64,000 nucleotides of DNA. Source: Mycobacterium heckeshornense (GTDB taxonomy: Bacteria; Actinomycetota; Actinomycetes; Mycobacteriales; Mycobacteriaceae). The translations under genes and the position numbers were made by a program. The notes below the pieces were generated by a model, which was given only the letters and a program-made list of their open reading frames with translations, searched no databases and had not been told where the DNA came from. Below are positions 18,045 through 62,633 of the stretch, one piece after another (positions within the stretch are counted from its first letter, which is position 1; every line of letters starts with the position of its first letter). The stretch lies in assembly GCF_016592155.1 (NCBI RefSeq), contig NZ_AP024237.1:2418001-2482000 (forward strand). The letters are read 5' to 3'.

Positions 18045-18084
18045 GGGCGAAACTCCTGGCATCGGCAGAGGGACCATCCTTGGC

Positions 18085-18282
18085 CCTCCCCCTCTGTCTT
18101 CACCCGTTCGCGGGCGCCTGAGAGATTCAGCGCTGACCGCCTTTCCCCATCGGCGGGTGACCGGTGTCACCGCTTTCCAGAGGCATCGTGTCTTAACGCG
18201 GTCCGGGTGCCTGAGAGGTTGGCGGAGAGGTGTTGCTCCTTCGGCGTCCGTGGCTGGCGGTCACGGAACTCTCCCGCGCCGA
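18085..18282 (-). promoter_or_regulatory. tandem glycine riboswitch of gcvB
   Basis: Two glycine aptamers stand in series in the 5' leader. Read on the minus strand, aptamer I (about 18282-18200) begins GCGCGGGAGAG, holds GCCGAAGGAGCAA and closes with CCTCTCAGGCACCCGG. Aptamer II (about 18180-18085) contains GGAAAGCGGTGAC, CGATGGGGAAAGG, TCTCTCAGGCGCCCG and ends in GACAGAGGGGGAG. These are the standard conserved elements of the family. The expression platform runs into the gcvB ribosome-binding site, so control may be translational or by termination. Confidence 0.92.
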
Positions 18283-18390
18283 GTCGATGCGCGGCTGATT
18301 GTACCGAGCGGCTCTGCCTGATGGCGAGCGGGTGTCGATGCCGCCGACACGCCGCGTGACACGCACAATTGCGCCAGCGCGCGAAAGCCG

Positions 18391-43943: not shown

Positions 43944-45617
43944 TCAGCCGCTGCCGAGCTGGACACCTTTGACTGCCAGCAGGATCGCCCCAATAATGAG
44001 ATAGCCTCGGAGCGCGAGCATGCCCAGGCGAGTTCCGACAGACCATTGAACCGGCTCCAGCAAGGCAAGTGGCGGCATCCGCCACGTTGCTCGGTCAGCT
44101 GTAGCTAATGCCCGAGAAAGATCCTCGGAAACCAGCCGTTTCGGCGACATACGGCCATTCCACTTCAGCACACCGAAAGTGACTGCGACGCAGATGACGA
44201 GACCGACCGCGAGGTCGTCTGCGATGGACATGATGTCCAGATCGGGAAACACCGTGGTCGTCATCAATACTCCGGACAACAGTAACAGCACGCCAACGAT
44301 CACCCCGGCAACGACGTTGAGCCAGCGCTGGTTTACCCACGGGCCCAGCACTTCCCGATCGTTGCAGAGCAGCAGCAAAAACACGGTTGCGCTGGGTAGG
44401 AGCAACCCTGCCAGCGCTTGCACGCCGGTCGTGATCAACCCCAGCGGCGCACCCGGAGTGAGCACGATCACGGCCGCGATCACCACCATGACGGTGTAAG
44501 ACAGGTAGAAGGGTTTAGCCTCGGTGAAGCCCCGGTGCAGCGAATGCTTGAGGCCGAACACGTCCCCGAACGCGTAGCTGGTGGCCAACGTCACCGCCGC
44601 CGCGCCGATGATCGAGCCGTCGAGCAGCACGATCGCAAAGAACGATCCCAGCACTGGATTGTGCTGGCCGAGTAAGTGCGCGAGCACACCGGCGTCAACG
44701 AAATGGCCGCGGCTACCAGTTGAACGCGCGGCCCAGTCGCCGGTCATCATCAACGCAACTGCCCCGATCACCACGACGAAGGCGCCCAGCGTGGTATCCG
44801 CCCGCTCATAGCCGATAAACCGTGGAGTGATCCGCTTGTCGACGACGTTGGACTGCTGGAAGAACAGCTGCCACGGCGCAACCGTGGTGCCAACAATGGC
44901 AATGATCAACAGCACGGCGTCCGAGGTAACTCCGCCGCTAATCCCGGGAATGACAAATGACTTCGCCGCACGGCCCCAGTCCGGATGCGACATTAACACC
45001 ATGGGAATCTGCAGCAGAGTGATCACGATGAACACGAGCATCGCGCGTTCCCAGCGGCGAAAGCTGCCGGTGACCATGATGGCGATCAGCGCCATCGCGG
45101 CGAAAGGGACGACTACATACCTGGGAATTCCCATGTAGTCGGCGGCCAAGCTGATGCCGATAAATTCGGTGACGAGAGTGAGGAAGTTCAACAGAAACAG
45201 GTCACCGACGGAAAACCAGCCCCAGCCGCGGCCAAACCGTTCGTTGATCAACCGCGCATGCCCAACCCCGGTCACGGCGCCCAGACGAACCACCATCTCC
45301 TGGTTGACGATCAGCACCGGGATCAACAGGAGAAGGACCCAAAGCATGCTGTAGCCGTAGTTTTGTCCCGCTTGCACGTATGTCGCAATACCTCCGGCGT
45401 CGTTGTCGCCGACCATGACGATCAGGCCAGGACCGATGATCGCCAACATGGTTGCCAGTCGGACTTTGAAGGTGCGCGGACGGTCGGAATCGCTAATGCT
45501 GATTCGGCCCAGTGCACCTTCGATGTCCCCGACGTGGGCGCTGTCCAGCACCGCGGTCGGCGTCGGTGCCTCCAGCGTCGCGTCGACGATGTCGCGGTCC
45601 AGGATGGTCATAGCCAA
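43944..45617 (-). CDS. Nramp-related divalent-metal transporter, NRMT-like (copy 1)
   Basis: A 557-residue protein with about 11 transmembrane helices and a 50-residue cytoplasmic N-terminus. It has the Nramp fold, but both metal-site motifs differ: helix 1 has DAGG (residues 73-76) in place of DPGN, and helix 6 has GTTVAPWQ (APWQ at 247-250) in place of MPHN. Loss of the Asn and Met ligands argues against Mn2+/Fe2+ selectivity and resembles the NRMT branch, which carries Mg2+. The start overlaps the end of the MgtE-domain/CBS gene by 10 bp, so the two are translated together. It lies on the transcript that starts from the leftward M-box. Confidence 0.85.
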   Translation of the reverse strand: MAMTILDRDIVDATLEAPTPTAVLDSAHVGDIEGALGRISISDSDRPRTFKVRLATMLAIIGPGLIVMVGDNDAGGIATYVQAGQNYGYSMLWVLLLLIPVLIVNQEMVVRLGAVTGVGHARLINERFGRGWGWFSVGDLFLLNFLTLVTEFIGISLAADYMGIPRYVVVPFAAMALIAIMVTGSFRRWERAMLVFIVITLLQIPMVLMSHPDWGRAAKSFVIPGISGGVTSDAVLLIIAIVGTTVAPWQLFFQQSNVVDKRITPRFIGYERADTTLGAFVVVIGAVALMMTGDWAARSTGSRGHFVDAGVLAHLLGQHNPVLGSFFAIVLLDGSIIGAAAVTLATSYAFGDVFGLKHSLHRGFTEAKPFYLSYTVMVVIAAVIVLTPGAPLGLITTGVQALAGLLLPSATVFLLLLCNDREVLGPWVNQRWLNVVAGVIVGVLLLLSGVLMTTTVFPDLDIMSIADDLAVGLVICVAVTFGVLKWNGRMSPKRLVSEDLSRALATADRATWRMPPLALLEPVQWSVGTRLGMLALRGYLIIGAILLAVKGVQLGSG

Positions 45618-46951
45618 TCACCGCCCGCCTCAGTAGCGCCGGCATCGTCTGTCGCGCAGCTTGGTTCGCGCATCCGGCGTGGGCCCGGTTCTCGCCGTCG
45701 CCAGTCGTCGGGGATGGACGCCTTGAGCACGTCATCGACGGTGACAACCCCCAAGACCCGATCGTCGTCGTCGATGACGGGAATGGTGTGCAGGTCGTAG
45801 TCCGCCATCAGCACCGCGACGTCGGCCAGGTCGGCATCCGCGGTTACCCGGATGGGATCCGAATCCATCAGTGTCGCAACTGCTTCTGCGGGCTCTGCCT
45901 GCAACAACTTAACGACCGATACCACGCCGGCCAGCCGACCGTGTTCATCGAGGACATGCACCTGCAAAAGCGCTTCCGGCTGGAGGGCCTGGGCGCAACC
46001 GATGACGGCCAACGCCTCGCCCGCGGTCGCCCATGTTCCGCACGAGACGACGTCGACGTTCATCAATCCACCTGCGCTGTTGGGGTTGAACCCCAAAAGG
46101 GTGATCACCTTGGTGCGCTGCGGCGCGGGCATCAAGTCGAGAACCCGGCGGCGGCGGCACTGGCGCAGGTCCATAACCGCGTCGGCCGCGTCGTCGGCGC
46201 GCATCCGGCTGAGCAATGCGGCGACGTCGCCGTCGGGCATGTCATCGAGCAACCGACTGGCCTTGTCTGGCTCGAGTTCTTCGAAGACGTCGGCCTGCAG
46301 TTCCGGGTTGCTGCGCACTCGGTCCAGGATTTCTCCGCCTTCGGCGGCGTCGGCCACTTCGAGCAGGTCGGCAATTTGTGCGGGTTTGAGCGCCGCTACC
46401 CGTCCGGAAACGCGACGCATGGCCACCGACTGGTCGTGCCCGATCAACGGTTCGAACGCCTTCCAGTCGCGGGAAGCCTGTCCGCCGGGTGTTTTCAGCA
46501 GTCCGAACAGACGCGGCGGTCGCCGGGTGTCCAGTCGCTTCAACACCCACCCATCTGGGCTGTGTTCGAGTTCGACGTCGTACGCGCGGACCAATTCGCC
46601 TGCGGCGACGTCGATCAGGCGATACCCGAGTACATCCGAGCGCAACAGCACCTCACCTTGACGGCGCTCGAACCGGCGCAAGTCAACCTCGTTCTGTGCC
46701 AGGACTACCCGCTCGGGATGCAGCCGCCGAATTGATGCGCTTTGAACGAATACCCGCCGACCGCCGACCGCGGCCACGATTCCGGTGATCAGGGGGTAGG
46801 TATCCGTACCGCGCAATCGGACGACGATGTCGTCAACCCTGCCCACCGACTCACCGGACGGCATCACCACGGGGGCGCGTAGCAACTGAGACAGATGAAC
46901 CAATGACGCTGCGGTCTGGACGTCAACGGGCTCGGCGGCTGGTTTGCTCAT
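45608..46951 (-). CDS. MgtE N-domain + CBS-pair protein lacking the membrane pore
   Basis: A 447-residue soluble protein. The N-terminal region (about 15-115) looks like a PRC-barrel (MPSGESVGRVDDIVVRL, FERRQGEVLLRSDVLGYRLIDV). It is followed by an MgtE N-terminal superhelical domain (about 165-290; LKPAQIADLLEVADAAEGGEI, ASRLLDDMPDGDVAALLSRM) and a CBS pair (about 300-420; DSDPIRVTADADLADVAVLM, VDDVLKASIPDDWRR). In MgtE channels these two domains sense cytoplasmic Mg2+ and gate the pore. Here the pore domain is missing and the NRMT-like transporter gene follows in overlapping frame, so I infer a detached gate for that transporter. Confidence 0.85.
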   Translation of the reverse strand: MSKPAAEPVDVQTAASLVHLSQLLRAPVVMPSGESVGRVDDIVVRLRGTDTYPLITGIVAAVGGRRVFVQSASIRRLHPERVVLAQNEVDLRRFERRQGEVLLRSDVLGYRLIDVAAGELVRAYDVELEHSPDGWVLKRLDTRRPPRLFGLLKTPGGQASRDWKAFEPLIGHDQSVAMRRVSGRVAALKPAQIADLLEVADAAEGGEILDRVRSNPELQADVFEELEPDKASRLLDDMPDGDVAALLSRMRADDAADAVMDLRQCRRRRVLDLMPAPQRTKVITLLGFNPNSAGGLMNVDVVSCGTWATAGEALAVIGCAQALQPEALLQVHVLDEHGRLAGVVSVVKLLQAEPAEAVATLMDSDPIRVTADADLADVAVLMADYDLHTIPVIDDDDRVLGVVTVDDVLKASIPDDWRRREPGPRRMREPSCATDDAGATEAGGDWL

Positions 46952-47004: not shown

Positions 47005-47289
47005 CTAGGCCCAGCTGGAGCCGACGGCGGCGTCGGTGCTGGCCATGTTGCTGCTGGCGGTTTGCACCTTTTGGCCGTGGGCGTTGGCCTGCTCGTAGAT
47101 CACCTGGAAGTTGCGGCCCAGCTCGGTGATGAACTGCTGGCACGCCGTCGACCCGGCGCCACCCCAAAAGTCACCGGCGGCCAGCACGTCACGGATGATC
47201 GCCTGATGCTCGGCCTCCAACGCCGCCGCCTGCGCCCGTATCGTGGCACCGTGCGCATCGACGTCACCGAACTGATAGTTAATCGTCAT
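47005..47289 (-). CDS. esxN: WXG100 protein EsxN (copy A)
   Basis: A 94-residue Esx protein starting MTINYQFGDVDAHG, with the WGG turn (GDFWGGAG) between two helices. It matches EsxN of M. tuberculosis and differs from the second copy at 62023-62307 by one residue (STDAAV against STDSAV). It should form a secreted heterodimer with EsxM; here the EsxM gene is separated from it by an unusual extra gene. An ATG three codons upstream is possible but less conserved. Confidence 0.93.
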   Translation of the reverse strand: MTINYQFGDVDAHGATIRAQAAALEAEHQAIIRDVLAAGDFWGGAGSTACQQFITELGRNFQVIYEQANAHGQKVQTASSNMASTDAAVGSSWA

Positions 47290-47335
47290 TTTTCGCACTC
47301 CTTCACACGAGAAATGTTGTATGGCAGTGAATTAG

Positions 47336-47746
47336 CTACGCGATACGCCGCTTTGGGCGATTGGATCGGGATCGGTGTCCTTCGGTTGCTTGCCGACCGC
47401 TGTTTGCGTGTAGCGAGAAATGCCGCAGCGCCTTGTCTTGTAGGCGTGCACGGTAGTACGCCCATGGCAAACGCCGCTCGATCGGCGTTCCGACCATTTG
47501 CCCGAGAAGGTAATTGGCTTCCCGTGCTCGATATAACGCCGTTTGGACACGTGCCACACCGAACGCGTCGACCGGGCTGTGCGAAAGCCGGCCCAACGCC
47601 TCCAGTGCTTCGTTTAGTGCGGCGTTGATGTCTCCGCAGGCTTTGTGCACCTGCCGCTCCATGTTGGGCGGATTGGTCACGCGCCGCGCCCCGGATTGAT
47701 CGGCACGGTGGGAGCCCACGTCGGTGAGCGGGTGATTGATCGTCAT
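47336..47746 (-). CDS. unrecognised protein with an EsxN-like beginning
   Basis: A 136-residue protein between the esxM and esxN genes. The ribosome-binding site (TTAGGAGGGAGATC) and first codons MTINHPLTDVGSH follow the same pattern as EsxN (MTINxxxxDVxxH), but the rest is different: a predicted helical region NMERQVHKACGDINAALNEALEALGRL and VQTALYRAREANYLLGQMV, then a very basic tail (about 110-136, RSRSNRPKRR). No WxG turn is present. I do not recognise the family. It may be a chimera formed by recombination at an esxN start. Confidence 0.6.
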   Translation of the reverse strand: MTINHPLTDVGSHRADQSGARRVTNPPNMERQVHKACGDINAALNEALEALGRLSHSPVDAFGVARVQTALYRAREANYLLGQMVGTPIERRLPWAYYRARLQDKALRHFSLHANSGRQATEGHRSRSNRPKRRIA

Positions 47747-47780
47747 GATCTCCCTCCTAACGTGAGAAGCGCTGTAGCCG

Positions 47781-48077
47781 TTAGCTGCTCAGGATCTGCT
47801 GGGACGCCTGTTCCTGGGCCTCGTAGTTGTTGGCGTCGCGGATCAGCCCGTCCCGCACCCCGTGCAGCATGTTGACGATGTTGCGAAACGCCTGATTCAT
47901 CTGGCTCATGGTGTCGTAGGAGGTGGCCTGCGCAGACCCGCTCCAGCCGGCACCGGCAATGTTGACCGACGACGCCCACATCTTGCGGGCCTCGTCCTCC
48001 ACGGTCTGAGCGTGCACGTCGAAACGGCCCGCCATCGCCCGCATCTGGTCCGGATCGGTCATAAACCGAGTAGGCAT
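47781..48077 (-). CDS. esxM: WXG100 protein EsxM (copy A)
   Basis: A 98-residue full-length Esx protein starting [19 protein letters not shown] with the WSG turn (GAGWSGSA) and the ending [14 protein letters not shown]. The protein is identical to copy B at 62337-62633. It pairs with EsxN in the ESX-5 secretion pathway. Many modern M. tuberculosis strains carry a truncated EsxM; both copies here are intact. Confidence 0.94.
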
Positions 48078-48119: not shown

Positions 48120-49359
48120 TTATCCCGCGGCGGGCGAACGTGTCACCACCGTGGGGCGGAAGCCGTATTTCGGTGCAGCGGAAGCGGTACCGTTACCGGC
48201 GGCGTTGGCTAGCGGCATGCCTGGCATCCCTGCCGCGACGGCCGGCGGTGTCGCGAGCGGGGTGTTGCCCAATGCCGCGCCGAGACCGTTCACCGGCGGG
48301 GCCGCCGCAGTCCAGCTCGGCGGTACCGACAACGGTCCGATTGAGGCACCCTGCCCTAACGCGGCCGACACGCCGCTGCCCAAACTCCCAAGGCCGCCAA
48401 CGCCGCCGAGCGAGCCCAGCGGAGCAGCCGCTGCCGCTCCGCCGAGTGCATCGGACGCCGCGTTGCCCAACGCATCTTCGGCAGCGGCTGCCGAACCTCC
48501 GCCGGCGCTCATCAAACTTGTGAAGGCACCCAACGTGTTGCTGGGCATGTAGAACCCCGACGAGAAAATGGTGTTCCAGATATTGGCGTTGGGCCCCCAC
48601 TGGTTCCAGAGGTTGTCCAGCGCGGAGTTCCCCGATCCCTGTCCGGTCAGCAGGCCCAGGATGCCACCGAGCCCCGAGGACGACGACGACGTCGACGCGC
48701 CGGGCGATGCCAGGTTCTGCAAGGCCGCCGGGACCGCAGAAGTCAGCTGCGACAACGTCGACTGCGTGCTCGTCCCCGCTGCGCTACCGCTGGCCTGGCT
48801 CACCGCGGCCGACTGCGCTACCAATGCGCCGGGATTGGTGTTCTGCGCCGGCACGTTAAACGGGGTTAGTTGGGTGGCCGCCGCCGATGCGCCGGCATAG
48901 CCATACATCGCGGCCGCGTCCTGGGCCCACATCTCGGCGTAGTGCGCTTCGGTGGCCGCAATGGCCGGGGTGTTCTGCCCCAGAAAGTTGGTGGCCACCA
49001 GCGCGGCCAGCTGCGCGCGGTTGGCCGCGATCACCGGCGGAGGCACCGTCGCGGCGAACGCTGCCTCGTAGGCGCTTGCCGCCGCGGTGGCCTGTGCCGC
49101 AGTCTGCTCGGCCTGCCCGGCAGTGGTACCCATCCACGCGACATAGGGGGGCTGCCGCTGCAGCCATCGATGCCGAAGCAGGGCCCTGCCACCCCCCGCT
49201 GGTCAACGCTGAGATTACGTCACCGTAAGAAGCTGCAGTAGAACGCAATTCAGCTGCCAGAGAGTTCCAAGCCGCGGCGGCCGTCAGCATGGGTCCTGAT
49301 CCGGGGCCGGAATACATTCTTGCCGAATTAATTTCGGGCGGAAGGAGGCCGAAATCCAT
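48120..49359 (-). pseudogene. PPE gene broken by a +1 frameshift (PPE25-27 type)
   Basis: The start [18 protein letters not shown] at 49359 is followed by a normal PPE domain up to AAAAP, where a run of six G (49146-49151 on the plus strand) shifts the frame. Expected is GCA GCC CCC TAT GTC; one extra C on the coding strand is present. In the other frame the PPE continues ([20 protein letters not shown]) to the motif [15 protein letters not shown] and the C-terminus [13 protein letters not shown]. Restored, it would be 412 residues. The cause may be a sequencing error in the homopolymer, a true pseudogene or phase variation. It lies between the PE gene and esxM. Confidence 0.82.
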
Positions 49360-49385: not shown

Positions 49386-49685
49386 TCACCCAGTCGCGAT
49401 GGTATTGGCGGCCTCAGTAGCCGCATATGAACTGGCGCTGGCGCCCAGAACGCGCACGAAAAATTCATGTACAGCTGCGGCCTGAGCGCTGACTGCCTGA
49501 TACATCTGTGCATGCGCGGCGAATTGTGTTGCAGTCAGCGCTGATACCTCGTCCGCTGCGGCGGGAATCACACCGGTGGTGGGTGCCGCGACAGCCGCAT
49601 TCTGGGCAGCCATCGCCGCGCCAATCCCCTGCAGATCGCCTGCTGCAGCGGCCAGCATCTCCGGCTGTGTGGTCACAAAAGACAT
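49386..49685 (-). CDS. PE protein (PE18/PE19/PE20-like)
   Basis: A 99-residue stand-alone PE domain: [20 protein letters not shown] at the start and [22 protein letters not shown] near the end, with the general ESX secretion signal YxxxD/E as YAATE. It has a good ribosome-binding site (TAAGGAGAATT). It is the first full-size gene after the leftward M-box riboswitch and its leader ORF, the position that PE20 holds in M. tuberculosis, and would pair with the PPE encoded next. Confidence 0.9.
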
Positions 49686-49806: not shown

Positions 49807-49887
49807 TCAGGCGGTGAAAAGAATGCCGGGGTCGGATCCGAACGAAACGGTCACCGAACTCGGATACGGACTATCACTAGGACTCAT
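49807..49887 (-). CDS. 26-residue leader peptide behind the leftward M-box
   Basis: A short ORF beginning MSPSDSPYPSS and ending GILFTA, preceded by a very strong Shine-Dalgarno, GAGGAGGTGAG. Its partner behind the rightward M-box is exactly the same length and shares SDSPY at residues 4-8, GS at 17-18, GI at 21-22 and the final Ala. The early Pro/Ser/Asp-rich run recalls Salmonella MgtL-type leader peptides that sense Mg2+ through unstable translation. Its role is inferred. Confidence 0.6.
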   Translation of the reverse strand: MSPSDSPYPSSVTVSFGSDPGILFTA

Positions 49888-49975: not shown

Positions 49976-50149
49976 GCGGCACCCCTCTCGTCAGAGCTTT
50001 GGCACTGCACGGCGTATCCGGTGTCGTCCCGGAAGCCACTTGGGCTCAACCCTTAAGCCGGGAGGAGCTGTCCTGACCCTGGGCGTCTTTCGACGTTCGG
50101 GGTCAGTGGCCTTTGTCCGTGCAGACGCCTCACCTAGCGAGGTGCTTGC
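49976..50149 (-). promoter_or_regulatory. M-box (ykoK) Mg2+ riboswitch, leftward copy
   Basis: Read on the minus strand, the RNA contains CTCGCTAGGTGAGGC, then CCACTGACCCCGAACGTCGA, AAGACGCCCAGGGTCAG and the closing GTGCCAAAGCTCTGACGAG. These are the conserved blocks of the M-box family, which folds and shuts off expression when Mg2+ is high. It is an inverted copy of 50445-50617 with about two substitutions and one indel over 174 nt. Downstream, GGGTGCCG near its 3' end can pair with CGGCACCC (49922-49931 region), a plausible terminator platform ahead of the leader ORF. It stands upstream of PE-PPE-esxM-esxN-MgtE-NRMT. Confidence 0.88.
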
Positions 50150-50156
50150 ATCGGCC

Positions 50157-50185
50157 ATCGTGGCACTTAAAGCCGCATCAGTCAA
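50157..50185 (-). promoter_or_regulatory. promoter of the leftward M-box transcript
   Basis: On the minus strand, TTGACT (50185-50180) and CACGAT (50162-50157) are 17 bp apart, a SigA-like arrangement. The predicted start point is at about 50149, exactly where sequence identity between the two M-box copies begins. Confidence 0.5.
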
Positions 50186-50408
50186 CCCGGACGCGGTGAT
50201 CTTCTGCAATCTTTTCGCACCGGCGTGCTGAGCTCGAGAGGCGGCCGGAATCGGCAGGTGTGAGCACGACTGGTCCTGCCCTTGGTTGTCAGACAGCGGG
50301 GCGCGCATCCAGAGCCGGCCCCGCTGTAGCGACCCAGGTGGCGTCACCTTCTGCCAACCACGGCGGTGCGGGCGCGCGACGGCGCGCACCGCAATTTTGG
50401 CCGAATGC

Positions 50409-50438
50409 TTGACGGGCACCGGGCGGGAAGGTCAACAT
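50409..50438 (+). promoter_or_regulatory. promoter of the rightward M-box transcript
   Basis: TTGACG at 50409-50414 and CAACAT at 50433-50438 are 18 bp apart. The predicted start point is at about 50445, the first base shared with the leftward M-box copy. The agreement at both ends supports the two assignments. Confidence 0.5.
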
Positions 50439-50444
50439 GAACGA

Positions 50445-50617
50445 GCAAGCACCTCGCTAGGTGAGGCGTCTGCACGGACAAAGGCCACTGACCCCGAACG
50501 TCGAAAGACGCCCAGGGTCAGGACAGCTCCTCCCGGCTTAAGGGTTGAGCCCAAGTGGCTTCCGGACGACACCGGATACGCCGTGCAGTGCCAAAGCCCT
50601 GTCGAGAGGGGTGCCGC
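50445..50617 (+). promoter_or_regulatory. M-box (ykoK) Mg2+ riboswitch, rightward copy
   Basis: The same RNA as the leftward copy: CTCGCTAGGTGAGGC near the 5' end, CACTGACCCCGAACGTCGAA, GACGCCCAGGGTCAGGAC and the 3' block CAGTGCCAAAGCCCTGTCGA. The terminal CTCG and CGAG can close P1. The following 90 nt hold a local hairpin (CGGGTGACACCCG region) and then the leader ORF. It controls the NRMT-like transporter and the K+ channel to its right. In M. tuberculosis M-boxes are known before Rv1535 and the PE20 operon. Confidence 0.88.
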
Positions 50618-50709: not shown

Positions 50710-50790
50710 ATGAATTCGAGCGATAGTCCGTATCGGTATTCGGCGTCTGCTTCGCCCGGATCCTGCCGCGGCATCTCTGCTGTCGCCTGA
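50710..50790 (+). CDS. 26-residue leader peptide behind the rightward M-box
   Basis: A short ORF beginning MNSSDSPYRYS and ending GISAVA, preceded by AAGGAGGTGAG, a nearly perfect complement to the 16S rRNA 3' end. Length, SDSPY, GS, GI and the final Ala are shared with the leader peptide on the other strand, although the nucleotide sequences around them have diverged; this argues for selection on the peptide. It ends 185 bp before the transporter gene. Confidence 0.6.
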   Translation: MNSSDSPYRYSASASPGSCRGISAVA

Positions 50791-50974
50791 GCCCGGACTT
50801 CTCTGACGCAGGTCGGCCATCGCCGCCCTGCCACGGTGTGGGATGGCCGGGGGCGTCTGCACGTCCTGGACACCGCCCGCACCGCGACTTGGCTGTCGTG
50901 TTCGCCGAAATACCTTGAGCCATAATGTCTTTCCCACAACGTCCTCTGTTTTCCCACTAGATAGCGAGGAGCCG

Positions 50975-52768
50975 ATGACTTCCATCTCCACCGAGGTACA
51001 CGGACGTGTCGGCACACCGCCCACCGATGGCGCCACAGTCCAAACTGCACCGGATGTGACGCACCCGGCGATTGCCGGCGCATCCAGGCCGACAGCAATG
51101 GACGCCGCCCACGTCGGTGACATCATCGGCGCGTTCGGCCGGATCGCCAAGGACGCCACGGCGCCGGGCCGGACCCGCTGGCAGCGGTTGCGGACACTGA
51201 TGGTGATCACCGGACCAGGACTGATCGTCATGATCGGCGACAACGACGCCGGCGGTGTAGCGACCTACTCGGAGGTGGGTCAGAACTACGGGATGAGTCT
51301 GCTGTGGGTCTTGGTCTTGATGATCCCGGTGCTCTACGTCAACCAGGAGATGGTGCTGCGGTTGGGCGCGGTCACCGGCGTTGGCCACGCCAGACTCATT
51401 TTCGAACGGTTCGGCAAGTTCTGGGGCGCGTTCAGTCTGGGCGACTTGTTGATCCTCAACGCGTTGACCATTGTCACCGAATTCATCGGTGTTTCACTGG
51501 CGCTGGGATTTCTGGGCTGCCCTAAGACGGTTGCGATCCCGACCGCAGCGGTGTTGCTCTTCGCGGTGGTCGCCGGTGGCTCCTTCCGCCGCTGGGAACG
51601 GTTGATGTTCGTGCTGATCGCCGCCAACGTGGCGCTTGTCCCGGTGGTGTTGCTGGTGCATCCCAGCGTGGGCGAAAGTGCGCGCGGGCTGATTCCGTCG
51701 TTGCCGGGCGAACCTGACTCGATCGTGTTGATGGTAATCATCTCGATCGTAGGGACGACCGTGGCGCCGTGGCAGCTGTTCTTTCAGCAGTCGAACGTGG
51801 TGGACAAGCGCATCACGCCACGCTGGATTCCTTACGGCAGAGCAGATCTGGCCATAGGGATCGTTGGTGTCATCGGCGGGGGTATCGCGCTCATGGCGGC
51901 TACCGCGTTCGGTTTACGTGGCACCAACGACGCCGGCAACTTCGTCGACGCGGGAGCGGTGGCCTCCCAGTTGTCCCACCACGTCGGCCATACCGTAGGC
52001 GTGTTGTTTGCGATCGTGTTGCTGGACTGTTCGCTTGTCGGCGCCAACGTGATCGGGCTGTCTACCACCTACGCGCTCGGCGATGCCGTCGGTAAGCCCC
52101 ATTCGCTGCACTGGAAGGTCACTGAGGCCCCACTGTTTTACAGCACTTACGCTGCGCTGCTTGCGGTGTCGGCTGCGGTTGCCTTTAGCCCGGATCATGT
52201 CCTTGGCCTGATCACCCAGGGTGTGCAGGTTCTCGCCGGTATCTTGCTGCCTTCGGCGACAGTGTTTTTAGTATTGCTGTGCAACGACCGTCCCGTGCTG
52301 GGGCCATGGGCAAACACTTTCCGGCAGAACGCCTTAGCCTGGGCAATCGTCTGGTCGCTGGTCGTGCTGTCGCTAATGCTAACGGCGGTGACGCTGTTTC
52401 CCAACCTGTCGACGGAAACGCTCGAGGGCGGCCTGGTTGCCGGAGTTGTGATCGGCTTCCTCGGCGCGGCAATTGTTTTCGCAATCGGCTGGTACACCGA
52501 CCGTCGTGCTGCGGACGATACCGTCCCGTTGGGCGCACTGGATCCGGAACAGTTAGAGGAGCTCGACAACTTTCCGGAGTTGACCGGTGCCGATCGAAAA
52601 GCATTCCGGGACAGAGTCCGTGCAACCTGGCGCATGCCTGCTTTGGCAGCCCTACCTCGCCCGGTCATGTCTCCGGTGCGTCGGGCGGGGCTCTTGACGC
52701 TGCGCGTCTACCTCGTCCTTGCCGGTGTGTTGGTCGTCGTCAAAGTAGTCCAGGCAGGCGTGGGATGA
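50975..52768 (+). CDS. Nramp-related divalent-metal transporter, NRMT-like (copy 2)
   Basis: A 597-residue protein and clear paralogue of the transporter at 43944-45617. The cytoplasmic N-terminus (1-75) is followed by about 11 helices. Helix 1 carries DAGG (91-94) where Nramp has DPGN, and helix 6 carries GTTVAPWQ (APWQ at 264-267) where Nramp has MPHN, so Mg2+ or another hard divalent ion is the likeliest substrate. An extended loop (about 510-560) is rich in Asp/Glu. The ATG at 50975 follows GCGAGGAG. It is under the rightward M-box and should be induced at low Mg2+. Confidence 0.86.
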   Translation: MTSISTEVHGRVGTPPTDGATVQTAPDVTHPAIAGASRPTAMDAAHVGDIIGAFGRIAKDATAPGRTRWQRLRTLMVITGPGLIVMIGDNDAGGVATYSEVGQNYGMSLLWVLVLMIPVLYVNQEMVLRLGAVTGVGHARLIFERFGKFWGAFSLGDLLILNALTIVTEFIGVSLALGFLGCPKTVAIPTAAVLLFAVVAGGSFRRWERLMFVLIAANVALVPVVLLVHPSVGESARGLIPSLPGEPDSIVLMVIISIVGTTVAPWQLFFQQSNVVDKRITPRWIPYGRADLAIGIVGVIGGGIALMAATAFGLRGTNDAGNFVDAGAVASQLSHHVGHTVGVLFAIVLLDCSLVGANVIGLSTTYALGDAVGKPHSLHWKVTEAPLFYSTYAALLAVSAAVAFSPDHVLGLITQGVQVLAGILLPSATVFLVLLCNDRPVLGPWANTFRQNALAWAIVWSLVVLSLMLTAVTLFPNLSTETLEGGLVAGVVIGFLGAAIVFAIGWYTDRRAADDTVPLGALDPEQLEELDNFPELTGADRKAFRDRVRATWRMPALAALPRPVMSPVRRAGLLTLRVYLVLAGVLVVVKVVQAGVG

Positions 52769-52827: not shown

Positions 52828-54570
52828 ATGGGAGCCGCGAACGGCATGTACGGCCACATCCTTGTCAGCGGTGAGGATGCGCTGGCGACGACAATCATCA
52901 ATGAACTGAAAAGCGCCGGCGCGAGCGTTGTCAAGCTGTGCGACAGGGAGCTCGCCTCGGCGGCAATCGCCGACGCTGCTGCGGTTGTCTGCGCAGGTGA
53001 CGATGATGCAACAAATCTCGAAATCGCCTTGCTGGCAAGGAAAGCAAACCCACGTGTGCGCGTTGTGGCGCGGCTGGCCAACGACATCCTGCGCTCAGCT
53101 ATGGCCGCCGACAACGGACCGGGTGCGATTTTGAACGTGGCCGACCTGGTCGCCCCCGCGATCGTCGAAGCATGTCTGGCACATGCCGTGCATCCGTTCG
53201 AGGCGGCCGGCGTCAAATTCGTGGTGTGGGGCGCCGAGACGCCGCATGATGCGACCCTGCGCGAGCTCTACGGCGACCTGGCACCGGTGGCGGTCATCGG
53301 CGGCGAGAACTCCCCCAACCGCGACGAGGTGATGGTGTGTCCCGGCCGGGATGTGTCGGTATGCGGCGGCGACTGGGCAGCGATGATCGGGACCGCCGAC
53401 GAGATGGCTGCCCGTTCCATCACCTTCCCGCAACCGAGCAGAATACGCGCACGCCGACCCTGGTTGCGGCGGGTGCGTGACGCCGTGCGCACAATCCGTG
53501 ACGACGTCAACCCGGCGTTCTTCCCGTTATCAGCGGCCGGGCTGGTTCTGCTGATCGGCTCGACTGTCCTGTTGCGGTTCAGCTATCAGCGCCCGCCGGG
53601 TATGACCTGGCTTGACGCGTTGTACTTCAGCGCCGAGACGATCACGACGGTGGGCTACGGCGACGTCAGCTTTGTCCAACAGCCCACCTGGCTACGGGTG
53701 TTCAGCGTCGTGCTGATGTTCGTCGGCATGGCCACCACGGCTGTTCTGATCGCGTTCATCGCCGACCTGCTGCTGTCGCGCCGCTTCGTCCATACCGCCG
53801 GACGCCGACGCGCGCGTTATCTGCGTAACCACATCATCGTCGTCGGCCTCAGCGCGCTGGGGATCCGCGTCGTACGTGATCTCACCGCAGCCGGACATGA
53901 CGTCGCGGTGATCGAGCATGACGAGAGCAATCGCTTCTTGGCGGCAGCGGCTGAGCTCGACGCGCCGGTGGTCTTCGGCGACGCTACCCTGCGCGAGACA
54001 CTGGAATCTGCGCATGTTGAACGCGCCCGTGCGGTAGCTGTCCTGACCGGTGACGACATGGTCAACATCGAAATCGGAATCGTGCTTCGCGAAATGCTCG
54101 GCTTCCGGGAAGGCCCCGAACGCAATCGGTGGCTCGACGTTCCGATCGTGCTGCGCGTCTACGACCGCGCATTGGGCTTGGCGGTCGCGCAACGCTTTGA
54201 TTTCGAAAACGTCCGGTCCACCGTCGAACTGGCGGCACCCTGGTTTATCGGCGCCGCAATGGGCTTGCAGGTGCTCGGAACGTTTTCGGTCGGGCAACTC
54301 TGCTTCATGATCGGCGCCATGCATGTCGATGCGGGCAGCGAACTCGACGGCCTGCGCATGTCCGAGATGTCCACCCAGACTCGCGTCATCGCAGTTGCCC
54401 GGCCGAACGCGCCCGTGGAGCTGCACCCACGCCGCGACGCCCAGCTCAAGGCCGGCGATACCGCCTACCTCGTCGGCCCCTACCGTGAACTGCTGAGCAC
54501 GCTGCGCAAGGGGCAACCCTCGCAGGCACCCGCCGCGCTGATTACGGCAGCGCAGCGCGACCGCTGGTGA
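52828..54570 (+). CDS. RCK-gated potassium channel with two TrkA-N domains
   Basis: A 580-residue protein. Residues 1-200 form an N-terminal RCK/TrkA-N-like domain (MYGHILVSGEDALATTII). There follow transmembrane helix 1 (about 231-250), a pore loop with the K+ selectivity filter TVGYGD (274-279), transmembrane helix 2 (about 290-314), and a second RCK domain (about 334-560) with NHIIVVGLSALGIRVV for nucleotide binding and a TrkA-C-like end. RCK domains on both sides of a two-helix pore are seen in GsuK-type channels, which respond to nucleotides and divalent ions. It follows the NRMT-like gene by 59 bp in the M-box transcript. Confidence 0.88.
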   Translation: MGAANGMYGHILVSGEDALATTIINELKSAGASVVKLCDRELASAAIADAAAVVCAGDDDATNLEIALLARKANPRVRVVARLANDILRSAMAADNGPGAILNVADLVAPAIVEACLAHAVHPFEAAGVKFVVWGAETPHDATLRELYGDLAPVAVIGGENSPNRDEVMVCPGRDVSVCGGDWAAMIGTADEMAARSITFPQPSRIRARRPWLRRVRDAVRTIRDDVNPAFFPLSAAGLVLLIGSTVLLRFSYQRPPGMTWLDALYFSAETITTVGYGDVSFVQQPTWLRVFSVVLMFVGMATTAVLIAFIADLLLSRRFVHTAGRRRARYLRNHIIVVGLSALGIRVVRDLTAAGHDVAVIEHDESNRFLAAAAELDAPVVFGDATLRETLESAHVERARAVAVLTGDDMVNIEIGIVLREMLGFREGPERNRWLDVPIVLRVYDRALGLAVAQRFDFENVRSTVELAAPWFIGAAMGLQVLGTFSVGQLCFMIGAMHVDAGSELDGLRMSEMSTQTRVIAVARPNAPVELHPRRDAQLKAGDTAYLVGPYRELLSTLRKGQPSQAPAALITAAQRDRW

Positions 54571-62022: not shown

Positions 62023-62307
62023 TTAGGCCCAGCTGGAGCCGACGGCGCTGTCGGTGCTGGCCATGTTGCTGCTGGCGGTTTGCACCTTTTGGCCGTGGGC
62101 GTTGGCCTGCTCGTAGATCACCTGGAAGTTGCGGCCCAGCTCGGTGATGAACTGCTGGCACGCCGTCGACCCGGCGCCACCCCAAAAGTCACCGGCGGCC
62201 AGCACGTCACGGATGATCGCCTGATGCTCGGCCTCCAACGCCGCCGCCTGCGCCCGAATCGTGGCACCGTGCGCGTCGACGTCGCCGAACTGATAGTTAA
62301 TCGTCAT
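62023..62307 (-). CDS. esxN: WXG100 protein EsxN (copy B, core locus)
   Basis: A 94-residue protein that differs from copy A by one residue (STDSAV). It has the WGG turn and lies in the canonical ESX-5 place between esxM and espG5. The DNA of the two copies is almost identical, which suggests recent duplication or gene conversion. Confidence 0.95.
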   Translation of the reverse strand: MTINYQFGDVDAHGATIRAQAAALEAEHQAIIRDVLAAGDFWGGAGSTACQQFITELGRNFQVIYEQANAHGQKVQTASSNMASTDSAVGSSWA

Positions 62308-62336
62308 GGTCTAAGTCCTCCTAACGGCTCTGGTGG

Positions 62337-62633
62337 CTAGCTGCTCAGGATCTGCTGGGACGCCTGCTCTTGGGCCTCGTAGTTGTTGGCGTCGCGGATC
62401 AGCCCGTCCCGCACCCCATGCAGCATGTTGACGATGTTGCGAAACGCCTGATTCATCTGGCTCATGGTGTCGTAGGAGGTGGCCTGCGCAGACCCGCTCC
62501 AGCCGGCACCGGCAATGTTGACCGACGACGCCCACATCTTGCGGGCCTCGTCCTCCACGGTCTGAGCGTGCACGTCGAAACGGCCCGCCATCGCCCGCAT
62601 CTGGTCCGGATCGGTCATAAACCGAGTTGGCAT
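62337..62633 (-). CDS. esxM: WXG100 protein EsxM (copy B, core locus)
   Basis: A 98-residue protein identical to copy A, with the GAGWSGSA turn. It is followed after 29 bp by esxN, the normal operon order for the secreted heterodimer. The C-terminal half carries the composite secretion signal (YEAQE). Confidence 0.95.

What the first reader, a model, noticed from the sequence alone, without database searches (positions are those of the whole stretch)
49976..50617. Divergent pair of M-box Mg2+ riboswitches controls an ESX-5 PE/PPE-Esx operon on one side and a cation-transport operon on the other
The sequence shows two inverted, about 98% identical 173-174-nt copies with all the conserved M-box blocks, each with its own TTGAC promoter starting exactly at the edge of identity. 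From family knowledge, the M-box turns genes off at high Mg2+, and in M. tuberculosis one precedes the PE20-PPE31 operon. A back-to-back arrangement that places PE, PPE, EsxM, EsxN, MgtE-domain and NRMT genes on one side and NRMT plus K+ channel genes on the other is not something I know to be described. The near identity suggests recent duplication with inversion.
Basis: partly seen in the sequence, partly recalled or inferred. Interest (0 to 1): 0.95.

Follow-up and report, generated by a model that had tools for sequence, protein, structure and literature searches.

The report
Back-to-back magnesium switches kept matched
Two nearly identical RNA elements, predicted to sense magnesium, sit back to back between two sets of genes predicted to import metal ions; the same paired layout occurs in four other mycobacteria, and the sequence pattern points to an old pair whose copies have likely been kept alike by DNA copying between them, not to a recent duplication.

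Summary
Two full M-box aptamers (RF00380; 151.7 and 150.9 bits, cut-off 44) lie at 49976-50148(-) and 50446-50617(+), with 170 of 172 aligned bases identical plus one gap. Gene content is as read (PE, PPE, EsxM, EsxN, MgtE_N/CBS, NRMT; NRMT, K+ channel), but PPE is split over two frames. Both leaders carry the SD plus 26-codon uORF2 module recently described for the M. tuberculosis pe20 M-box. 'Recent duplication with inversion' is not supported: five of 396 Mycobacterium genomes have such a pair beside PE/PPE/Esx genes (orthology of one, G359, uncertain). Promoters and downstream leaders group by operon, aptamers by genome (AU: aptamer rejects by-operon, p=0.010 with five genomes, 0.001 without G359; downstream rejects by-genome, p=2e-43). 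That is concerted evolution centred on the aptamer, most simply gene conversion. An mgtC-side divergent pair in two other genomes is not homogenised. Predicted working: both halves switch on together at low Mg2+, an ESX-5-exported PE/PPE outer-membrane route plus inner-membrane NRMTs. Single M-boxes before PE/PPE and Nramp genes were already known; the divergent homogenised pair did not appear in the listings of my searches. Also, 7 of 9 Nocardia leaders carry uORF2. New variant of a known kind; regulation untested.

The parts
49976..50148 (-). M-box aptamer heading the PE/PPE/Esx/MgtE_N/NRMT side
   Evidence: RF00380 151.7 bits, model 1-169
50446..50617 (+). M-box aptamer heading the NRMT/K+ channel side
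   Evidence: RF00380 150.9 bits, model 1-169
50157..50185 (-). predicted promoter, TTGAC ... CACGAT; TTGAC begins 37 nt upstream of the aptamer
   Evidence: pattern, same offset in 10 of 10 pair leaders
50409..50438 (+). predicted promoter, TTGAC ... CAACAT; TTGAC begins 37 nt upstream of the aptamer
   Evidence: pattern, same offset in 10 of 10 pair leaders
49807..49887 (-). uORF2 (26 codons) after an AGGAGG Shine-Dalgarno; MSPSDSPYPSS...
   Evidence: family described in PMC12810186 (Rv1805A)
50710..50790 (+). uORF2 (26 codons) after an AGGAGG Shine-Dalgarno; MNSSDSPYRYS...
49386..49685 (-). PE protein
   Evidence: PF00934, E 6.7e-33
48120..49359 (-). PPE gene split over two reading frames: N-terminal part matched at 49147-49359, the rest at 48168-49148; left as found
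   Evidence: tblastn pieces; PF00823 from profile position 76 and PPE-SVP
47781..48077 (-). EsxM-like WXG100 protein, identical to the copy at 62337-62633
47336..47746 (-). 136-aa ORF of unknown family between EsxM and EsxN; homologs near M-boxes in four more genomes
   Evidence: no Pfam/NCBIfam hit
47005..47289 (-). EsxN-like WXG100 protein, 98.9% identical to the copy at 62023-62307
45608..46951 (-). MgtE_N + CBS protein (no MgtE membrane domain found by Pfam)
   Evidence: PF03448, PF00571
43944..45617 (-). NRMT-type Nramp transporter; ORF overlaps the MgtE_N ORF by 10 nt
   Evidence: PF01566; 7qia 197 bits; GDNDAGG, GTTVAPW
50972..52768 (+). NRMT-type Nramp transporter (the ORF itself is open from 50843)
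   Evidence: PF01566; 7qia 197.5 bits; GDNDAGG, GTTVAPW
52828..54570 (+). K+ channel-like protein with TrkA_N domain
   Evidence: PF07885, PF02254
54579..56411 (-). EccA of the adjacent type VII locus (ESX-5 by recalled gene order); EccE, subtilase, EccD, EspG and two WXG100 genes follow to 62633
   Evidence: TIGR03922 773 bits

Best explanation
The locus is an old divergent pair of M-box leaders, each with a predicted promoter and a 26-codon uORF, that would switch on two metal-import gene sets together when Mg2+ is scarce, and whose aptamers have likely been kept alike within each genome by gene conversion. Shown here: both aptamers score as complete RF00380; promoters and uORFs sit at fixed offsets; across the pairs compared, promoters and downstream leaders fit grouping by operon side and aptamers fit grouping by genome. 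Inferred from M. tuberculosis pe20 work: with Mg2+ bound, the aptamer holds the 3' strand of P1 (SD1), an anti-SD masks SD2, uORF2 is not translated and Rho ends transcription; without Mg2+, SD1 takes the anti-SD, and uORF2 and the operon are expressed. Inferred from gene families: PE/PPE exported by the neighbouring ESX-5 would carry Mg2+ across the outer membrane, two NRMTs across the inner membrane, the MgtE_N/CBS protein would gate an NRMT by cytosolic Mg2+, and the K+ channel might balance charge. Also inferred: sequence exchange keeps the two sensors, and so their Mg2+ thresholds, matched.
For: RF00380 hits; four M-boxes in the genome, two of them this pair. Pairs beside PE/PPE/WXG100 genes in G000, G186, G060, G083, G359. 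Aptamer identity within genomes: G000 98, G186 98, G060 99, G083 92, G359 93%; same side G000 to G060 92-93%. Downstream 170 nt within genomes: 66, 65, 75, 59, 63%; PE side to PE side, G000 to G186 and G060, 95 and 83%. AU tests, five genomes: aptamer rejects by-side (p 0.0104), accepts by-genome (0.316); downstream rejects by-genome (2e-43), accepts by-side (0.375); upstream rejects by-genome (6e-6), accepts by-side (0.278). Without G359 the aptamer rejects by-side at p 0.001, the by-genome tree is 0.0002 log units from the best, and by-genome costs 76.5 (downstream) and 45.7 (upstream) log units; without G359 and G186 aptamer p 0.0006; G000 and G060 alone p 4e-10. Shared-site patterns summed over the 10 overlapping genome pairs: aptamer 68 by genome, 7 by side; downstream 39 and 162; upstream 16 and 65. 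The rv1535-like M-boxes of the same genomes go by locus: 89-98% among genomes, 82-89% to the pair. Control pair G031/G250: 0 by genome, 11 by side. uORF2 codons 2-10: pS 0.25-0.41, pN 0.11-0.18 in 5 overlapping sets. SD2 accessibility rises when the P1 3' strand is added in 15 of 17 leaders; window pair 0.34 to 0.63 and 0.44 to 0.60. NRMT.
Against: Homogenisation is strong in three genomes only (G000 and its near relative G186, and G060). In G359 the NR-side aptamer is nearer to G060 (95%) than to its partner (93%), and G359 has a second NR-type M-box on a short contig, followed by the 136-aa ORF's homolog, so which of its two is the ortholog is open. In G060 the NR-side downstream leader is nearer to PE-side leaders (75-79%) than to NR-side ones (66-69%), so exchange there may run past the aptamer, and the best downstream tree does not recover the sides cleanly. 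Bootstraps on the five-genome aptamer tree are 36-92. The gene next to the second M-box varies: NRMT in G000, G186, G060; a distant Nramp without the NRMT signature in G359; the 136-aa ORF's homolog and no recognised transporter in G083. The K+ channel follows in G000 and G060 and was not found in G186. The window's PPE gene is broken. Folding support is modest: 2 of 17 leaders shift the wrong way, and only 6 of 17 beat 95% of 50 shuffles; in the window's two, 6% and 38% of shuffles reach the value. An Nramp with an MgtE-like partner in Acidobacterium mainly rescued Mn transport (PMC4072509, passages). No expression data.
Confidence: 0.7

Rival explanations
1. Recent duplication with inversion in this lineage alone.
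For: 98% identity of the two copies.
Against: Pairs with side-specific promoters and leaders in other genomes; flanks reject by-genome grouping.
Confidence: 0.05
2. The aptamers look alike within a genome because selection tuned both copies in parallel to the same Mg2+ set point, without DNA exchange.
For: The M-box is strongly constrained; even rv1535-like M-boxes are 82-89% alike to the pair.
Against: 68 site patterns are shared within genomes and differ between them, 7 go the other way; parallel change at that many sites is unlikely. The rv1535-like copies in the same genomes do not follow the pair.
Confidence: 0.15
3. Homogenisation is a passive by-product of close inverted repeats and has no regulatory meaning.
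For: The pair with the longest spacer (G083, 869 bp) is the least alike of the five (92%).
Against: Pairs G031 and G250 have spacers of 362 and 495 bp and are not homogenised; on their partner side G250 has only NRMT fragments, none was found in G031, and a VWA-domain gene follows. That is one lineage only.
Confidence: 0.4
4. The + side M-box serves a manganese, not magnesium, transporter ('Mn-type' M-box of PMC12810186).
For: Class name in PMC12810186; Mn transport by an MgtE-associated Nramp (PMC4072509, passages).
Against: Both Nramps keep the NRMT site motifs and are nearest to EleNRMT by over 110 bits.
Confidence: 0.2

Closest known systems
M. tuberculosis pe20 (rv1806) M-box with uORF2/Rv1805A (PMC12810186, parts 1-4 of 6 read)
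   Same: Aptamer family, PE/PPE operon, SD2 and a uORF2 of the same kind with conserved N-terminus
   Different: mgtC at the operon end; no divergent partner or back-to-back pair is mentioned in the parts read. The paper calls the peptide specific for mycobacteria; here it is also in Nocardia
M-box-Nramp (nrmT) operons (PMC4072509, passages read)
   Same: M-box upstream of NRMT, with an MgtE-like fragment gene
   Different: Mostly Clostridia and Deltaproteobacteria; no PE/PPE, no divergent pair in the passages seen
M. avium ykoK leaders before MAV_2915 (PE), MAV_3236 and MAV_5197 (manganese/iron transporter) (PMC3774663, passages read)
   Same: Same kinds of target genes under M-boxes in one mycobacterium
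   Different: Listed at separate coordinates, not back to back
mgtC-side divergent M-box pair of G031/G250
   Same: Two M-boxes back to back, 362 and 495 bp apart
   Different: Aptamers not homogenised; no NRMT gene on the partner side, only fragments in G250

Membership tests
M-box (ykoK) riboswitch RF00380 | Covariance model score over gathering cut-off, full length | tested here: met
   151.7 and 150.9 bits, cut-off 44, model 1-169
M-box (ykoK) riboswitch RF00380 | Leader of a metal transport gene | tested here: met
   NRMT, MgtE_N/CBS downstream; co-transcription inferred
M-box (ykoK) riboswitch RF00380 | Mg2+-dependent folding and OFF control | not testable with these tools
   needs probing and reporters
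Mycobacterial translational M-box with uORF2 | SD2 plus conserved uORF2 downstream of aptamer | tested here: met
   26-codon ORF after AGGAGG in both leaders
Mycobacterial translational M-box with uORF2 | SD1 / anti-SD / SD2 alternative pairing | tested here: inconclusive
   15 of 17 leaders shift as expected, 6 of 17 beat 95% of shuffles
Mycobacterial translational M-box with uORF2 | Rho-dependent termination in the leader | not testable with these tools
   needs Term-seq or Rho depletion
NRMT magnesium transporters | Site residues Asp, Gly (helix 1), Thr, Ala, Trp (helix 6) of EleNRMT | tested here: met
   GDNDAGG and GTTVAPW in both proteins, alignment of the + side protein to 7qia
NRMT magnesium transporters | Mg2+ transport | not testable with these tools
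   needs transport assay
Concerted evolution by gene conversion | Paralogous copies more alike within than between genomes while flanks are not | tested here: met
   strong in three of five genomes
Concerted evolution by gene conversion | Direct observation of conversion tracts between strains | not tested
   one genome per species was available
PE20/PPE31-type outer-membrane Mg2+ route | Intact PE and PPE partners | tested here: not met
   PPE split over two frames in the window; whole in G186

The most novel reading that the evidence does not exclude
Two back-to-back riboswitches are held at one set point by repeated gene conversion between them, so that the outer-membrane and inner-membrane halves of a Mg2+ import route fire at the same Mg2+ level; when one operon decays, the matching is lost. 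This would be a case of a regulatory RNA pair maintained by concerted evolution.
Probability: 0.35. Interest if true: 0.72.

Novelty: new variant of a known kind. Interest (0 to 1): 0.5.

Why it matters
If right, one stretch of DNA would couple a PE/PPE outer-membrane route and inner-membrane magnesium transporters under matched sensors, giving a concrete genetic unit in which to test whether secreted PE/PPE proteins work with a dedicated inner-membrane carrier. It also shows that aptamers can follow a different history from their own promoters and expression platforms, which matters for tracing riboswitch ancestry from aptamer trees alone. The uORF2 in Nocardia widens a module so far described as mycobacterial.

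Tried and rejected
Recent duplication: rejected by flanks shared across genomes. Promoter swapping by inversion of the spacer between the repeats: site patterns in the upstream 60 nt favour the same side over the crossed pattern in 7 of 10 genome pairs, tie in 2 and tie three ways in none but G000-G083 (3, 3, 3), with G083-G359 at 2 to 1, so no sign of flipping. A hairpin between the uORF2 start region and its own 3' codons, suspected from single folds: codon-shuffle test gave p<0.05 in 3 of 95 leaders, dropped. Whole-uORF2 pN/pS was 1.01, 1.13, 0.58, 0.78 and 0.88 in the five sets, so only the first ten codons show clear protein-level constraint. The 136-aa ORF taken at first for EsxN: wrong, EsxN is the next ORF. 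More pairs among relatives: the 'relatives' draw gave 25 genomes already searched and 16 from the wider order, one of these with a single M-box. Counting relatives of the MgtE_N protein (96 of 396 genomes at E<=1e-80) served only to choose G282, G117 and others for fetching. Literature listings seen: 20 of 147, 20 of 79, 4 of 4, 15 of 42, 12 of 22, 5 of 6, 10 of 906, 12 of 27, 10 of 11. None of the listed titles or abstract openings describes a divergent M-box pair, riboswitch gene conversion or a Nocardia uORF2; the library holds open-licence papers only.

Full report
Observation. The genome (one contig, 4.96 Mb) has four M-boxes: this pair, one followed by uORF2 and an ORF of about 80 aa, which I take for the rv1535 type from memory, and one without a uORF2 before a long ORF that I did not identify (one search failed). 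The two copies match at 170 of 172 aligned positions with one gap, and the match ends at the aptamer edges. TTGAC starts 37 nt upstream of the aptamer in both, and in all ten leaders of the five pairs compared, so transcription would start at about the first aptamer base.

Genes. On the minus side: PE, a PPE gene split over two frames, EsxM, a 136-aa ORF of unknown family, EsxN, MgtE_N+CBS, and an Nramp. On the plus side: an Nramp and a K+ channel with a TrkA_N domain. Then come EccA, EccE, a subtilase, EccD, EspG and the second EsxN/EsxM pair; I call this locus ESX-5 from recalled gene order. EsxM is identical to, and EsxN 98.9% identical to, the copies 14-15 kb away in that locus. Both Nramps match EleNRMT (7qia) far better than any other solved Nramp and keep its binding-site motifs (residues from passages of PMC8806188). 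In the named loci L035-L114, 49 reading frames match both DAGG and GTTxAP; all 49 have Trp after AP (frames were chosen by those two motifs).

Leaders. Each aptamer is followed by AGGAGG and a 26-codon ORF, the uORF2 module that D'Halluin et al. describe for the M. tuberculosis pe20 and rv1535 M-boxes (PMC12810186, parts 1-4 of 6). Among 115 distinct leaders in the loci then fetched, a biased set, 95 have an SD followed by an ORF of 15-40 codons; I made no chance estimate for that rule, but 77 of the 95 share [DE]S[PWC] near the start. Protein-level constraint is clear in about the first ten codons only. Seven of nine Nocardia leaders have it, with GDSPYP at the start, against the statement in that paper that the peptide is specific for mycobacteria. 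The paper's alternative pairing (SD1, anti-SD, SD2) is weakly supported here: SD2 becomes more accessible with the P1 3' strand in 15 of 17 leaders, but only 6 of 17 beat 95% of 50 shuffles, and the window's two leaders do not.

How common. Of 396 Mycobacterium genomes, one per species, 199 have an M-box. Positions were listed for G000 and for all 165 others with two or more matches. Seven, this one included, have two M-boxes pointing away from each other within about 1 kb. Draft genomes broken into many contigs could hide more. Five (G000, G186, G060, G083, G359) have PE, PPE and WXG100 genes on one side; MgtE_N/CBS and NRMT follow in four (in G083 only 86 residues of MgtE_N match), and in G359 the contig ends first. 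The other side has the orthologous NRMT in three, a distant Nramp in G359, and only the 136-aa ORF's homolog recognised in G083. G359 has a further NR-type M-box elsewhere, followed by that homolog, so its pair may not be strictly orthologous. In G282, G117 and G071 there are two or three same-strand M-box-PE-PPE modules beside eccA instead. The remaining two pairs (G031, G250) have mgtC on one side. A Streptacidiphilus fuscans locus has another divergent pair.

Age and homogenisation. If the pair were a recent duplicate, its flanks would not have side-specific relatives elsewhere. They do. Downstream leaders are 95% (G186) and 83% (G060) alike on the PE side but 66% between the two sides of the window. 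Aptamers show the reverse: 98-99% within G000, G186 and G060, 92-93% between G000 and G060. With five genomes the aptamer rejects grouping by operon side (AU p 0.0104), and the downstream and upstream stretches reject grouping by genome (2e-43 and 6e-6), while the opposite constraint is accepted each time. Dropping G359, whose orthology is uncertain, sharpens this: aptamer p 0.001, and the by-genome tree is as good as the best. Site patterns over the ten genome pairs give 68 to 7 for the aptamer, 39 to 162 downstream, 16 to 65 upstream (the genome pairs overlap, so these are not independent counts). In the G031/G250 pair the aptamers follow their operon, 11 to 0. Weak points: G083 and G359 show little homogenisation (92 and 93%), G000 and G186 are near relatives, five-genome aptamer bootstraps are 36-92, and in G060 the NR-side downstream leader leans to the PE side (75-79% against 66-69%), so the exchanged stretch may run past the aptamer there. 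The pattern rests on about two strongly homogenised lineages.

Mechanism. I take the pair to be two OFF switches for one response, by analogy with pe20, whose Mg2+ control lies in the leader (Kolbe et al. 2020, PMC7755994, passages) and whose PE20-PPE31 were tied to Mg2+ uptake across the outer membrane (Wang et al. 2020, as cited in PMC12810186 and PMC7755994; not read). NRMTs would complete the route across the inner membrane; PMC4072509 (passages) already speculates that MgtE-like fragments give feedback on NrmT. The K+ channel's role is my guess. Exchange between the aptamers would keep both operons on one threshold; this last step is the least certain.

Verdict. Real, well placed and more than chance; single elements known; a divergent homogenised pair did not appear in the listings of the searches made. 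New variant of a known kind. On checking, confidence in the best explanation went from 0.72 to 0.70, because orthology in G359 is uncertain and the G060 leader is mixed; interest is unchanged.

Noticed in passing
48120-49359(-): First PPE gene split over two reading frames; the ortholog in G186 (L118 7798-8988) is whole. Real frame break or assembly error not decided; not mended.
   Followed up: partly
47005-48077 and 62023-62633 (-): EsxM copies identical and EsxN copies 98.9% identical between the M-box operon and the type VII locus.
   Followed up: partly
47336-47746(-): 136-aa ORF of unknown family between EsxM and EsxN; in G060, G083 and at a second M-box of G359 its homolog follows an NR-type M-box instead. 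The large protein search gave four proteins, itself included.
   Followed up: partly
L059, L062, L064, L065, L070, L075, L076 (Nocardia loci): uORF2-like ORF of 23-29 codons with GDSPYP after the M-box; the two other Nocardia leaders (L057, L060) did not show it.
   Followed up: yes
L131, L132, L133: Two or three same-strand M-box-PE-PPE modules beside eccA in G282, G117, G071.
   Followed up: partly
18084-18286(-): Tandem glycine riboswitch aptamers (RF00504, 60 and 44.5 bits).
   Followed up: no
L077 8029-8581: Divergent M-box pair in Streptacidiphilus fuscans, 211 bp apart.
   Followed up: partly
L120 3979-5160(+): M-box followed by a distant Nramp lacking both the classical and the NRMT signature; reading frame runs off the contig.
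   Followed up: partly
L118 12303-16799(-): Between NRMT and eccA, G186 has a cation-transporting P-type ATPase where G000 and G060 have the K+ channel.
   Followed up: no
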